DNA from: Bdellovibrio sp. ArHS
GTDB lineage: Bacteria; Bdellovibrionota; Bdellovibrionia; Bdellovibrionales; Bdellovibrionaceae
DNA: 64,000 bases
Reading direction: 5' to 3'
Assembly: GCF_000786105.1 (NCBI RefSeq)
Contig: NZ_JTEV01000015.1
Span: 1 to 64,000 of the forward strand
Shown here: positions 3,095 through 7,488 of the stretch, piece after piece
How the letters are laid out: each line of letters opens with the position of its first letter
How positions within the stretch are numbered: position 1 is the stretch's first letter
Notes under the pieces: generated by a model
The model's input: the letters and a program-made list of their open reading frames with translations, nothing else
What the model was told of the DNA's origin: nothing
Database searches by the model: none
Position numbers and translations under genes: made by a program

Positions 3095-3847
3095 ATGATG
3101 GAAATGCTTTCGAATCCTCAAATCTGGATTGCCTTCGGTACTTTGTTCGCTTTGGAACTGGTCCTGGGAATCGACAACGTTATCTTTATTTCAATTCTGG
3201 CGGGAAAACTGCCTAAGGACCAACAGCAAAAGGCGCGTATGACGGGCCTGGGGCTGGCAGTTTTGACTCGTATTCTGCTACTGTTCTCTCTGTCTTGGAT
3301 CATCGGTTTGACCGAGCCTATTTTTTCAGTCATGGATCACGAAATTTCTGGGCGCGATCTTATTCTTCTTCTGGGCGGTTTGTTTCTTCTTGTTAAAAGT
3401 ACCGCCGAAATTCATCACAAGCTAGAAGGAGTCGAAGGTAGCCAGTCCAAAAACGTCGCCCATTCTTTCGGTGCAGTTATCGTGCAGATCCTTCTTTTGG
3501 ATATCGTTTTTTCACTCGATTCTGTGATCACTGCCGTCGGGATGGTGAAAGAATTGTCCGTGATGATTGCGGCAGTTCTGGCCTCGACCGCTGTTATGAT
3601 TTTTTCGGCGAAAACAATCAGCGATTTTGTCGATTCGCATCCGTCTTTGAAGATCCTTGCTTTGAGCTTCCTATTGATGATTGGCTTCACCTTGATCGTC
3701 GAAGCTTTGGAAGTGCATATTCCCAAAGGATATGTTTACTTCGCCATGGCCTTTTCTATCGGCGTGGAAATGCTGAATATTCGTATGCGTAAAGCCAGTG
3801 CCAAAGACCACGTTAAACTTCGTGAAAGAATCGCGGAGGAAAAGTAG
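3095..3847 (+). CDS. TerC family integral membrane protein
   Basis: A 250-residue polytopic inner-membrane protein with about seven hydrophobic segments. The family hallmarks are visible: ELVLGIDNVIFISILAGKLP near the N-terminus and the second acidic repeat LDIVFSLDSVITAVGM near residue 137. These intramembrane Asp/Asn residues are the presumed metal site of TerC/Alx-type transporters, some of which export manganese. AAAGGAG lies upstream; an ATG at 3098 is equally possible. The stop overlaps the next start by one base, so the two genes are translationally coupled. Substrate not determinable here. Confidence 0.9.
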   Translation: MMEMLSNPQIWIAFGTLFALELVLGIDNVIFISILAGKLPKDQQQKARMTGLGLAVLTRILLLFSLSWIIGLTEPIFSVMDHEISGRDLILLLGGLFLLVKSTAEIHHKLEGVEGSQSKNVAHSFGAVIVQILLLDIVFSLDSVITAVGMVKELSVMIAAVLASTAVMIFSAKTISDFVDSHPSLKILALSFLLMIGFTLIVEALEVHIPKGYVYFAMAFSIGVEMLNIRMRKASAKDHVKLRERIAEEK

Positions 3848-4779
3848 TGTCTTCCCAGCGCCAACAGGATTCTTATTGGATGCGCAAGGCCCTGCATCTT
3901 GCGCGTAAAGCGGCGGTTAAGGGAGAAGTTCCTGTCGCCGCCATTCTGGTGGGACCTGAGGGCCTTATTTCCTGGGCTGTGAACACGCGCGAAAGACAAC
4001 AAACCCCCTTGGGTCATGCGGAACTTTTCGCGCTTCATAAAGCTTCTCAGAAAAAACACAGTTGGCGATTGAGCGACTGCACTCTTTATGTAACCTTAGA
4101 GCCCTGCGTGATGTGTGCGGGCGCTATTCAACAGGCGCGTCTGAAGCGGGTTGTTTATGGCGCTTCTGACCCAAAGGGTGGCGCCGTTCAAAGTCTTTAT
4201 CAAGTCCTCAGCGACTCTCGATTGAACCATCAAGTCGAAATCACCCCGGGGGTTCTTGCCGACGAATGCGCCGCTCTTATTCAAAGCTTTTTTCAAGATC
4301 GTCGCGAAGAAAAAAAGACCGAACAGTCGCAAAAGATTTTTCGCGACAGAGCCTCGGTTGTAGTCGTGCACAAAAATCAAATTTTAGGCTTCCACGCTGT
4401 CGATCCAACGTCGAAAATGCCCTACTTTTTTTTACCGGGGGGCGCAATTGAACCCGGAGAAAGTCTGCCCGACGCCGCCGCCCGCGAGTGCTTGGAAGAG
4501 ACTGGCTACAAAGTTCGCATCCTTGAAGAAACCGCTTTTGAAAGGAAGTACGATTTTCCTTGGAACGGAAAAATTAACGCGTGCCGAACGGTGTTCTATT
4601 TGGCGGTGTTGGATCAAGAATGGACTCCGCCTCACAAAGTGGAGGATGCCGACTATCACAAAGGTGTTGCCTGGATAAGCGCAAAAGATGCCTCACAGAT
4701 CTTTTCATATAACAAAGAGATCCTTTGGGCCGTGCAAAAATTGCTGAAAACCGCCCAAAAGAAATCCGCCTTGCGCTGA
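3847..4779 (+). CDS. tRNA adenosine deaminase (TadA) fused to a Nudix hydrolase
   Basis: Residues 8-150 are a complete TadA domain, which converts adenosine-34 of tRNA-Arg to inosine: catalytic H57-A-E59 and zinc ligands C87 and C90 in EPCVMC. Residues 165-300 are a Nudix domain with an intact Nudix box running from G199 through E205, R213, E214, E217, E218 and G220. A charged linker (DRREEKKTEQ) joins them. Stand-alone TadA is about 150-170 residues, so this 310-residue protein is a true fusion in one frame. The Nudix substrate is unknown; damaged or modified nucleotides are possible. It starts with GTG overlapping the terC stop, with GGAGGAAAA upstream. Confidence 0.92.
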   Translation: MSSQRQQDSYWMRKALHLARKAAVKGEVPVAAILVGPEGLISWAVNTRERQQTPLGHAELFALHKASQKKHSWRLSDCTLYVTLEPCVMCAGAIQQARLKRVVYGASDPKGGAVQSLYQVLSDSRLNHQVEITPGVLADECAALIQSFFQDRREEKKTEQSQKIFRDRASVVVVHKNQILGFHAVDPTSKMPYFFLPGGAIEPGESLPDAAARECLEETGYKVRILEETAFERKYDFPWNGKINACRTVFYLAVLDQEWTPPHKVEDADYHKGVAWISAKDASQIFSYNKEILWAVQKLLKTAQKKSALR

Positions 4780-4808: not shown

Positions 4809-6284
4809 ATGACAACGACAAAATTTACTGACCTCCCCTTGATAGCCCCTCTTCAATTCGCACTTAAAGAAGCAGGATATGAAACCCCAACACCCATTCA
4901 GTTGGCCTCCATTCCTGTACTTTTACAGGGGAAGGACCTTCTCGGAATCGCACAAACAGGAACCGGAAAAACTGCCGCGTTCAGCCTACCTATTTTGCAG
5001 AACCTGGCAAAACATCAATCTCGCCCGGAAGCAAAATGCCCGCGAGCTTTGATCCTAACGCCGACGCGTGAACTTGCGATTCAGATTCACGAAAACATTG
5101 AGGCCTACAGCAAACACTTAAAGCTTAAACATGCCGTCATCTATGGTGGCGTCGGGCAAAATCCCCAAGTCCGAGCCTTGCAAGCTGGTGTCGACATTCT
5201 GGTCGCCACTCCGGGACGCCTGTTGGATTTGTTTTCGCAAAAGTTTTTGCGTCTGGATAAAGTTGAAATTTTCGTTTTGGATGAAGCCGATCGCATGCTC
5301 GACATGGGTTTCATGCAAGATATTAAACGTATTTTGCCTTTGCTTCCCAAAAAGCGTCACAACTTGTTTTTCTCGGCGACAATGCCTCCCGAGATTTCAA
5401 AGTTAGCGCATAATATTTTAGTGAATCCGGAAAAGGTGGAAGTCACTCCGACATCTTCGACCGCCGAAAAGGTGGATCAGACGGTGATGTACGTGGAGAA
5501 GAAAGATAAGCTTGATCTTTTGATCCACCTTCTTAACGACAACGATCTCTATAAAGTCTTGGTTTTTGTGCAAATGAAGCACGGCGCGAATCGTGTGGTA
5601 GATAAATTGGTGAAAGCCAACATTTCCGCTGCGGGTATTCACGGAGATAAATCGCAGTCCGCTCGCCAACGTGCTCTTGAAGATTTCCGCAATGGTGATG
5701 TTCGGGTTTTAGTGGCGACAGATATTGCCGCTCGTGGAATTGATATCGAAGGCATTACTCACGTTATTAATCTTGAAGTGCCTCACATCCCCGAAAGTTA
5801 CGTTCACCGCATTGGGCGAACAGCTCGCGCGGGAGCTTCCGGTGCCGCCATTTCATTCTGTACTGCCGAGGAAAAATCCTTCATGTACGCGATTGAAAAG
5901 GTCACTCGCCAGCCGGTTCCTTTGGTCAAAAATCAACCTTACCATTCTGAGGCCATTGAAAAAGCGCAGGTTTTAAGTGCCGGCAAGGCCAAGGCGATCT
6001 TAGAAGGTCAGCGTCTAGAAAACAGAGCCAAGAATCGTGCGGGCCAAAAGCCGAAACACGCTTCTGGTGGCCATAGTAGCCATGGTGGCGGCAGACCCCA
6101 CAAGTCTGCTGATTCTCACAAAAGAAAAGCCTCTCATAGCGGTGGAGAAGACAGACCGCAAAAAGCGGCTTCTCACAAAAGTGGGGCTTCACAAAGCAGT
6201 GGCCCCAATAAGAGTCCTGCTGGAAAAAAGGCGGACGCGCAAAAACCTAAAAGAAGATTTTTTGGATTTGGCAGAAAGGGCTAA
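4809..6284 (+). CDS. DEAD-box ATP-dependent RNA helicase, RhlE type
   Basis: About 491 residues. All helicase motifs are present: Q motif (TPTPIQLASIP), Walker A AQTGTGKT, PTRELA, TPGR, DEAD, SAT, and HRIGRTARAG. The last ~110 residues are a low-complexity basic tail rich in His, Ser, Gly and Lys, ending KRRFFGFGRKG, typical of RhlE-type helicases acting on ribosome assembly or mRNA decay. The frame is open from 4725, inside the previous gene, but ATG 4809 (MTTTKFTDLPL) begins the conserved part and lies 29 bases past the tadA stop. The ribosome binding site is weak. The 3' end overlaps the convergent gene by four bases. Confidence 0.95.
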   Translation: MTTTKFTDLPLIAPLQFALKEAGYETPTPIQLASIPVLLQGKDLLGIAQTGTGKTAAFSLPILQNLAKHQSRPEAKCPRALILTPTRELAIQIHENIEAYSKHLKLKHAVIYGGVGQNPQVRALQAGVDILVATPGRLLDLFSQKFLRLDKVEIFVLDEADRMLDMGFMQDIKRILPLLPKKRHNLFFSATMPPEISKLAHNILVNPEKVEVTPTSSTAEKVDQTVMYVEKKDKLDLLIHLLNDNDLYKVLVFVQMKHGANRVVDKLVKANISAAGIHGDKSQSARQRALEDFRNGDVRVLVATDIAARGIDIEGITHVINLEVPHIPESYVHRIGRTARAGASGAAISFCTAEEKSFMYAIEKVTRQPVPLVKNQPYHSEAIEKAQVLSAGKAKAILEGQRLENRAKNRAGQKPKHASGGHSSHGGGRPHKSADSHKRKASHSGGEDRPQKAASHKSGASQSSGPNKSPAGKKADAQKPKRRFFGFGRKG

Positions 6285-6553
6285 GGCCCTTTCACTTCAA
6301 CAATCTTTCGCGTCTTTTGTTCGACGAAAAATTTCACGGGTTTCTTCAACTTCTGGCTCTTTTTAAGATTTTCAAGAAAGGGCTCGTTGCCAGTCAGCTC
6401 ATAAACACTGGGATGAAGTTTAAATGAAACCCGCACTTTGCTGTTGGCAGTTTCAATTTTATAAACACTGTCGGTAAATGATTGCGTTTTTGGTGCAGGC
6501 ATTTCAGCCCAGGTTAACTGCGTAAATAGCAAAGCCACTAGCATTGACTTCAT
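6281..6553 (-). CDS. Small exported protein of unknown function, partner of the deamidase gene
   Basis: 90 residues with a clear signal peptide (MKSMLVALLFTQLTWA) cut near residue 16-17, leaving a basic 74-residue mature protein with no Cys. I recognise no family. Its ATG overlaps the stop of the upstream deamidase-like gene (ATGA, 6553-6550), so the two are translationally coupled. Chaperone, inhibitor or co-secreted factor for that enzyme are possibilities by context only. The stop region overlaps the convergent helicase end. Confidence 0.75.
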   Translation of the reverse strand: MKSMLVALLFTQLTWAEMPAPKTQSFTDSVYKIETANSKVRVSFKLHPSVYELTGNEPFLENLKKSQKLKKPVKFFVEQKTRKIVEVKGP

Positions 6554-7488
6554 CTTGCCTCCTCAAACCGCTCGTCCTCGCGGTCGGAAGCCAACATTCT
6601 CTGCTCTTCCTGACGAGCCTCTAGTTCGTGTTGCGCTTGAACCGTATCTGCGGCATGCCACTTCAAGCGATTTGGATCTTTCTTTGCCGACGGAAGTGTT
6701 TCGCCACGCAAAGGCCCGAGGTTGAATCGATCGGTGACGTAAGCCAGTGCTTCTTTTTTATCCTGAGAAGTCGTCAATAAGGTATCGGTCCACTGTTTCA
6801 CTGGAACAGGTTTATCATATAAAGCCGGATCTAAAACGCGCAGCTCAATTCCCTTATTTGTTTTCACCGCCACGACTGGAGCTACGTGGTAATTCCAAAT
6901 GTTCTGATCTTCATAAACCCGCTTTTCTTCCGGGATCACTAGACGACCTTCTAAAAACATTTTTGCGACTCGGATTCCCTTCTTCTCCATTTGTTGGGAA
7001 AAAATATGCGCCCGTGCATAACAGCCATTTGAGGTGGCGCCAAAGGCATAGCGTTCATCCTTCGCAAAATCACTGAAGATCTTGGCCGCTTCTTCTTCAG
7101 TTAAAACAGAAACCGGAATGTCTCCGGCAGCTGTTTTTTGCAGAGTGACTGTGGGGTAAACGACTCCTTTATATTTTGCAGATTTCGGGTCGCAGATTTC
7201 CGATTTGTTAAAGCTATCCAAAGATTTTGCAAGAGACTGATAGAACTCTTTATAGTCCGTCATCTTTGCCGAGGTTCCCGCTTGTGAAGCGGCGTTATTA
7301 TCGGGAAGCAAAGATTCTTCATAAACCCCGGCAGAGCTACAAAGTTCTTCCGCGAGAAAACGATCTCGCGACGAAAAATCGTCAGGAGCTGACTGAACAA
7401 GCTCTTTAAACTGACATGCCTCTGTGGGCGTTAAAGCCCAGGAAGTTTGAACTATTAAAAGTGAAAAAAATAAGGCGACCAAACGCAT
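6550..7488 (-). CDS. Predicted secreted protein-glutamine glutaminase (protein deamidase)
   Basis: 312 residues with an N-terminal signal peptide (MRLVALFFSLLIVQTSWA). The central part resembles the protein-glutaminase domain of Chryseobacterium, which deamidates glutamine side chains in intact proteins. A Cys-His-Asp triad is visible: C156 in NGCYARAH, H201 in WNYHVAP and D220 in VLDPAL, in the order and spacing of that family. Residues 20-145 may be a propeptide, as the known enzyme is made as a proenzyme. The C-terminal ~40 residues are highly charged. Export suggests periplasmic or extracellular targets, plausibly host-cell proteins during predation; that is inference. Confidence 0.8.
   Translation of the reverse strand: MRLVALFFSLLIVQTSWALTPTEACQFKELVQSAPDDFSSRDRFLAEELCSSAGVYEESLLPDNNAASQAGTSAKMTDYKEFYQSLAKSLDSFNKSEICDPKSAKYKGVVYPTVTLQKTAAGDIPVSVLTEEEAAKIFSDFAKDERYAFGATSNGCYARAHIFSQQMEKKGIRVAKMFLEGRLVIPEEKRVYEDQNIWNYHVAPVVAVKTNKGIELRVLDPALYDKPVPVKQWTDTLLTTSQDKKEALAYVTDRFNLGPLRGETLPSAKKDPNRLKWHAADTVQAQHELEARQEEQRMLASDREDERFEEAR

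What the first reader, a model, noticed from the sequence alone, without database searches (positions are those of the whole stretch)
6281..7488. Secreted protein-glutamine deamidase homologue with a coupled small exported partner
The 312-residue protein keeps a Cys156-His201-Asp220 triad in NGCYARAH, WNYHVAP and VLDPAL, the signature of the protein glutaminases, plus a signal peptide and a probable propeptide. These enzymes change intact proteins without cleaving them. The 90-residue exported partner overlaps by four bases and belongs to no family I know. Together they could form a secreted effector-and-inhibitor or enzyme-and-chaperone pair of a predator.
Basis: partly seen in the sequence, partly recalled or inferred. 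Interest (0 to 1): 0.8.

Follow-up and report, generated by a model that had tools for sequence, protein, structure and literature searches.

The report
Deamidase with separately encoded propeptide inhibitor
A predatory-bacterium-like genome carries an exported enzyme that most likely strips amide groups from glutamines in intact proteins, and right behind it a small exported protein that turns out to be the enzyme family's inhibitory "safety cap" made as a separate gene, so the cap and the enzyme meet only after synthesis.

Summary
In detail: 6550-7488(-) encodes a 312-aa exported protein with Cys156-His201-Asp220, and 6281-6553(-) a 90-aa exported protein starting in a 4-nt ATGA overlap. The first belongs to the protein-glutaminase family PF18626 (E 4.6e-26); its AlphaFold2 model matches solved protein-glutaminases at Z 14-16.5, next fold 6.8. 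The second is not family-less. Profiles of such partners hit, in the whole PDB, first the protein-glutaminase proenzyme and there only the pro-region (residues 28-91; E 4.3e-7 and 2.9e-6). So the pro-domain that known protein-glutaminases carry at their N-terminus is here a separate downstream gene. All nine genus genomes with the enzyme (window included) keep the pair; in a phylum sample 50 of 99 partner-domain hits lie directly downstream of a PF18626 gene, none upstream. The residue aligned with Ala47, mutated to Gln in the proenzyme crystals, is Ala/Ser/Pro in 38 of 39 partners, never Gln. Best explanation: an inhibitory pro-domain supplied in trans, blocking the active site during export. 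Closest analogue: SpeB-Spi. Inhibition and docking are inferred, not measured.

The parts
6550..7488 (-). Protein-glutaminase-family enzyme gene (312 aa)
   Evidence: PF18626 E 4.6e-26, over the curated cut-off; AF2 pLDDT 84.7, Z 16.5 to 8z3i and 15.4 to 3a54
7435..7488 (-). Signal peptide of the enzyme (residues 1-18, read by eye)
   Evidence: Sequence MRLVALFFSLLIVQTSWA; helix 2-15 in the model
7123..7434 (-). N-terminal region of the enzyme (about residues 19-122), mostly helical, no similarity found to the known propeptide
   Evidence: No pro-domain profile hit there; helices 21-33, 40-52, 79-94; absent in short relatives such as L010 and L015
6781..7086 (-). Gln_deamidase_2 catalytic domain (residues 135-236)
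7021..7023 (-). Catalytic Cys156 codon
   Evidence: equivalent to Cys156 of the Chryseobacterium enzyme (PMC4214742)
6886..6888 (-). Catalytic His201 codon
   Evidence: equivalent to His197
6829..6831 (-). Catalytic Asp220 codon
   Evidence: equivalent to Asp217
6558..6564 (-). Shine-Dalgarno GAGGAGG of the partner, inside the end of the enzyme gene
6550..6553 (-). ATGA overlap of enzyme stop and partner start
   Evidence: the same -4 spacing in 15 of the 80 scanned loci
6281..6553 (-). Partner gene (90 aa): exported, homologous to the protein-glutaminase pro-region
   Evidence: adjacency
6506..6553 (-). Signal peptide of the partner (residues 1-16, read by eye)
   Evidence: Sequence MKSMLVALLFTQLTWA
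6293..6460 (-). Part of the partner aligned with residues 31-89 of the protein-glutaminase proenzyme (pro-region)
   Evidence: alignment; with profiles
6401..6424 (-). Conserved loop F44-Y51 (FKLHPSVY), the counterpart of the proenzyme loop carrying Ala47; Pro48 (6410-6412) is the aligned residue

Best explanation
The locus is a two-gene operon for an exported protein-glutamine deamidase and its inhibitory pro-domain, encoded in trans. The enzyme is a protein-glutaminase-fold Cys-His-Asp enzyme expected to hydrolyse glutamine side-chain amides in intact proteins. The small partner is the domain that Chryseobacterium-type protein-glutaminases carry as an N-terminal propeptide. Both proteins are translated in tandem, exported separately by their own signal peptides, and (inferred) meet in the periplasm, where the OB-like partner lays its FxxH(A/P)xxY loop into the active-site cleft as a substrate mimic that has no glutamine. 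This keeps the enzyme silent near the producer's own proteins. Activity would appear when the partner is degraded or diluted away, for example outside the cell or inside prey. Shown by computation: enzyme family, triad, fold, homology of the partner to the pro-region, conserved adjacency. Inferred: binding in trans, inhibition, site of release, prey as target.
For: Enzyme: PF18626, PDB hits, AF2 model and fold match well above unrelated folds. Partner: single-sequence phmmer top PDB hit is the proenzyme 3a56, aligned to its pro-region (E 0.71, not significant alone); orthologue profile E 9.7e-4; wider profile E 4.3e-7, residues 32-91 only; 39 separately encoded partners E 2.9e-6, next unrelated hit 0.015. 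The same NCBIfam prepro-protein-glutaminase model is hit by the enzyme at positions 163-257 and, as the partner's only hit, by the partner at 52-110 (E 0.065, weak alone). A profile seeded with separate partners plus one C-terminal fusion and iterated finds the N-terminal pro-domains of Pedobacter, Elizabethkingia, Chitinophaga and Reyranella enzymes at the right place; reversed and shuffled controls give no hit. Pairing: all nine genus genomes with the orthologue, window included; 50 of 99 partner hits directly downstream, 0 upstream, 0 opposite strand, about 0.04 expected; a natural enzyme-partner fusion in G029 (L016); correlated divergence (Mantel r 0.46, 0 of 2000 permutations). Column aligned with Ala47: Ala 30, Ser 4, Pro 4, Asp 1, never Gln. 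Published: pro-form about 17-fold less active, cleaved propeptide can stay bound and needed 4 M urea to remove (PMC13139226); activated on pro-sequence cleavage (PMC12791059).
Against: No binding or activity was measured. The read-through model of a Bacteriovorax pair shows a confident partner fold, but neither the inter-domain error nor coordinates were available, so docking is untested. Many PF18626 genes have no partner (101 of 150 listed), including the three others in this genome, one of them a below-cut-off hit, and many partner-domain genes stand alone, so the pairing is not obligatory. The window partner has Pro where most have Ala. The pairing correlation may reflect shared descent.
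Confidence: 0.73

Rival explanations
1. The partner is mainly an intermolecular folding chaperone for the enzyme (a foldase), as some propeptides are, with inhibition secondary or absent.
For: Propeptides often assist folding (general knowledge); co-translation and co-export suit this equally well.
Against: Enzymes of the same family without any partner or pro-domain are common, in this genome too. In G133 the partner persists at the syntenic site where its relative G297 has enzyme plus partner (L053 against L050), which suits protection better than folding. The most conserved part is the loop whose counterpart carries Ala47 in the proenzyme.
Confidence: 0.12
2. The partner is an immunity protein that stays with the producer while the enzyme is delivered alone as an effector, so the two never travel together.
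For: Some relatives (L104, L113, L120, L129, L132) have partners without a signal peptide. Orphan partners exist.
Against: In the window and most relatives both proteins carry signal peptides. This differs from the best explanation only in where the complex ends up, and the evidence does not separate the two well.
Confidence: 0.1
3. The enzyme is not a protein deamidase in practice: the same fold and triad could serve as protease, transglutaminase or N-terminal amidase.
For: The papain/transglutaminase-like fold is shared by NTAQ1, LapG, SseI and transglutaminases (lower Z). The NCBIfam equivalog cut-off is not reached (49 against 250 bits).
Against: Z 14-16.5 to protein-glutaminases against 6.8 for the next fold; conserved GCYARAH, WxYHVAP and DPxL motifs of the protein-glutaminases.
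Confidence: 0.05

Closest known systems
Chryseobacterium proteolyticum protein-glutaminase (EC 3.5.1.44; PDB 2zk9, 3a54-3a56) and relatives (Flavobacterium 8z3i, Bacteroides helcogenes)
   Same: Catalytic fold, Cys-His-Asp triad and motifs; exported; the inhibitory domain is homologous
   Different: There the domain is the N-terminal propeptide of the same chain and is cut off; here it is a separate downstream gene with its own signal peptide. The window enzyme has an unrelated helical N-terminal region and only one cysteine, the catalytic one, in the catalytic domain.
SpeB-Spi of Streptococcus pyogenes (protease with an adjacent gene for a propeptide analogue; PMC2873492 citing Kagawa 2005)
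   Same: A propeptide-like inhibitor encoded next to a secreted cysteine enzyme
   Different: Unrelated families, and a protease rather than a deamidase. From general knowledge SpeB also keeps its own propeptide; here no cis copy was found.
I29 propeptide-like inhibitors (CTLA-2alpha, crammer, BCPI; PMC4089206)
   Same: Stand-alone proteins related to an enzyme's pro-domain
   Different: Animal cathepsin inhibitors of another family; from general knowledge not encoded beside their targets

Membership tests
PF18626 Gln_deamidase_2 | Score over the curated cut-off (25 bits) | tested here: met
   91.5 bits
PF18626 Gln_deamidase_2 | Cys-His-Asp triad in the family motifs | tested here: met
   C156, H201, D220 aligned with C156, H197, D217 (PMC4214742)
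PF18626 Gln_deamidase_2 | Protein-glutaminase fold | tested here: met
   Z 16.5/15.4/15.1 to 8z3i/3a54/2zk9
Chryseobacterium-type protein-glutaminase (NF040782, EC 3.5.1.44) | Equivalog cut-off 250 bits over the whole prepro-protein | tested here: not met
   49.4 bits, mature part only; so it is filed under PF18626, not as this equivalog
Chryseobacterium-type protein-glutaminase (NF040782, EC 3.5.1.44) | Pro-domain in the same chain, N-terminal | tested here: not met
   No pro-domain hit in the enzyme; hit in the neighbouring gene
Chryseobacterium-type protein-glutaminase (NF040782, EC 3.5.1.44) | Deamidates glutamine in intact proteins | not testable with these tools
   Needs an ammonia-release assay
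Protein-glutaminase pro-domain | Sequence homology to the pro-region | tested here: met
   (E 9.7e-4, 4.3e-7, 2.9e-6); iterated search reaches N-terminal pro-domains with clean controls
Protein-glutaminase pro-domain | Occupies and blocks the active site | tested here: inconclusive
   Loop conservation fits; docking in the read-through model could not be read out
Adjacent propeptide-like inhibitor pairs (SpeB-Spi kind) | Propeptide-homologous gene next to the enzyme gene, conserved | tested here: met
Adjacent propeptide-like inhibitor pairs (SpeB-Spi kind) | Demonstrated inhibition of the neighbouring enzyme | not testable with these tools
   Needs purified proteins

The most novel reading that the evidence does not exclude
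The separate gene is the older state, and the well-known propeptide of industrial protein-glutaminases is a later capture of such an inhibitor or immunity gene by fusion. On a quick tree of 76 enzymes the cis form is confined to one small group and the trans form occurs on many deep branches; the tree is not rooted and support is modest.
Probability: 0.3. Interest if true: 0.72.

Novelty: new variant of a known kind. Interest (0 to 1): 0.62.

Why it matters
It gives a likely function to an unannotated small exported protein (no Pfam family; found in Bdellovibrionota, Bacteroidota, alphaproteobacteria and others) and shows that a well-studied zymogen domain exists as a stand-alone gene. Predators must hold destructive enzymes safely before use; a removable, separately encoded cap is a concrete, testable way of doing so. 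It also offers a natural protein inhibitor for an industrial food enzyme.

Tried and rejected
The idea that the partner is a family-less effector or chaperone was dropped once profiles matched the pro-region. The idea that the enzyme's own residues 19-122 are the propeptide: no profile hit, and short relatives lack this region. Pfam and PHROGs gave no family for the partner; weak Pfam/NCBIfam hits of relatives (CCDC32, PapJ, ExbD and the like) are below cut-off and inconsistent. No paper in the held library links protein-glutaminase with Bdellovibrio or with immunity proteins. The key structural paper (Hashizume 2011, PMC3207460) is not held, so the role of Ala47 rests on the PDB title 'A47Q1 mutant of pro-protein-glutaminase', the paper's title and the A-to-Q difference at chain position 47 in the aligned PDB sequences. 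First attempts at alignments failed on wrong frames. Reading model coordinates to measure the triad or the docking was not possible. The Foldseek search of the read-through model matched the partner part only weakly to various OB folds, which suggests an OB-like topology and no function.

Full report
OBSERVATION. The minus strand of the window carries a 312-codon ORF (7488-6550) and a 90-codon ORF (6553-6281) that starts in the ATGA of the first one's stop. A strong Shine-Dalgarno (GAGGAGG, 6558-6564) lies four bases before the second start. Both proteins begin with what reads as a Sec signal peptide. The pair is flanked by a convergent DEAD-box helicase (ends 6284, 3' overlap of four bases) and a divergent M48-like metalloprotease (from about 7603). 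Of the nine genus genomes with the pair (window included) eight keep the helicase beside it; the metalloprotease is seen only in the nearest relatives, as far as the short flanks show.

THE ENZYME. Pfam gives one significant family, PF18626 Gln_deamidase_2 (91.5 bits against a cut-off of 25). phmmer finds the solved protein-glutaminases, and the alignment places Cys156, His201 and Asp220 on the triad C156/H197/D217 reported for the Chryseobacterium enzyme (PMC4214742). The triad is invariant in 20 homologues. An AlphaFold2 model (pLDDT 84.7, pTM 0.82) aligns with 8z3i, 3a54, 3a56, 2zk9 and 2ksv at Z 14-16.5; the next fold, NTAQ1, scores 6.8. The enzyme is therefore a PF18626 member. It does not reach the NCBIfam equivalog cut-off for the Chryseobacterium-type enzyme (49.4 against 250 bits), and its residues ~19-122 are an extra, mostly helical region not recognised as a propeptide.

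THE PARTNER. On its own the partner has no Pfam family. Yet in the PDB its best phmmer hit is the protein-glutaminase proenzyme, and there the pro-region (E 0.71, a lead only). With profiles this becomes firm: E 9.7e-4 with nine orthologues, 4.3e-7 with eleven diverse sequences (ten separate partners plus the fused G029 domain), 2.9e-6 with 39 separately encoded partners, always only residues about 28-91 of the proenzyme, with unrelated hits orders of magnitude weaker. NCBIfam gives the same answer from the other side: the model of the complete prepro-enzyme (NF040782) is hit by the enzyme at positions 163-257 and by the partner, as its only hit, at 52-110 (the partner's E of 0.065 is weak alone). 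A profile seeded with the sequences and iterated over all ORFs of 141 sequences reaches the N-terminal pro-domains of Pedobacter, Elizabethkingia, Chitinophaga and Reyranella enzymes, just ahead of the catalytic domain, although position was not used in the search. Reversed and shuffled ORFs give no hit. So the partner is the propeptide of this enzyme family, encoded as its own gene.

PAIRING. Every genus genome with an orthologue of the enzyme has the partner next to it. In a phylum sample of 291 genomes 50 of 99 partner-domain hits lie directly downstream of a PF18626 gene on the same strand, none upstream or opposite; about 0.04 would be expected by chance. Among 76 enzymes of the tree set (window plus named loci from GTDB genomes) the partner is a separate neighbouring gene in 46, an N-terminal part of the enzyme in 8, and not found in 22 (the 'trans' label of L137, a Chryseobacterium tandem array with cis pro-domains, is doubtful). 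The four-base overlap recurs in 15 of the 80 loci. In G029 the two are fused with the partner domain at the C-terminus (L016). In G133 the partner survives where the related G297 locus has both genes. Some Bacteroidota loci carry a cis pro-domain and an additional separate copy (L111, L124, L135). Enzyme and partner diverge in step (Mantel r 0.46, 0 of 2000 permutations), though common descent alone could give this.

MECHANISM. [quoted passage not shown] text not held). This implies that pro-residue 47 sits where a substrate glutamine would. In the profile alignments this residue falls on Pro48 of the window partner; in 39 partners the position is Ala 30, Ser 4, Pro 4, Asp 1 and never Gln, within the best conserved stretch F-x-x-H-A-(A/G)-x-Y. 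Published work says the pro-form is about 17-fold less active and that the cleaved propeptide can stay bound until 4 M urea removes it (PMC13139226), so this domain can bind without a covalent link. A read-through model of a Bacteriovorax pair (stop codon read as a residue, a device to fold both in one chain) gives the partner as a confident beta-beta-beta-alpha-beta-beta (OB-like) domain with this loop between two strands; inter-domain confidence was not available. I conclude that the partner most likely inhibits the enzyme in trans during or after export. Binding, inhibition and the place of release are inferences.

COMPARISON AND NOVELTY. The arrangement works like SpeB-Spi (PMC2873492) and like the I29 propeptide-like inhibitors (PMC4089206): a known kind of control, here found in an unrelated deamidase family, with no cis copy found. 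No paper in the held library describes it. I therefore call it a new variant of a known kind. A quick, unrooted tree shows the cis form confined to one group and the trans form on many deep branches, which leaves open that the separate gene came first.

LIMITS. No expression data, no measured activity, no docking confidence. The listing of enzymes was truncated, so the adjacency count is a lower bound.

Noticed in passing
G000:C13:123999-124274 (L041, L146); similar in G001, G018, G020 and other genus members: A second, stand-alone partner-domain gene without a neighbouring deamidase, at a conserved spot near uracil-DNA glycosylase and aroB/aroA-like genes in most genus members.
   Followed up: partly
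L053 (G133) compared with L050 (G297): Similar surroundings, but in G133 the deamidase is gone and the partner remains: an orphan inhibitor or immunity gene.
   Followed up: partly
L016/L046 (G029:C1): Natural fusion of enzyme and partner, partner at the C-terminus, with a stretch between them resembling a decayed signal peptide.
   Followed up: partly
L104, L113, L120, L129, L132: Partners without a signal peptide beside enzymes with long N-terminal extensions or without signal peptides; may be effector-immunity pairs of a specialised secretion route.
   Followed up: no
L076:2462-3211: The deamidase reads WGYNVAP instead of WxYHVAP: the catalytic His appears replaced by Asn while the partner is retained.
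   Followed up: no
L083 and L085 (also G254:C96): Two partner-domain genes in tandem behind a single long (about 620 aa) deamidase.
   Followed up: no
window 3847-4779 (+): ORF of up to 310 aa that looks like a TadA-type deaminase followed by a NUDIX domain in one frame; read by eye only.
   Followed up: no
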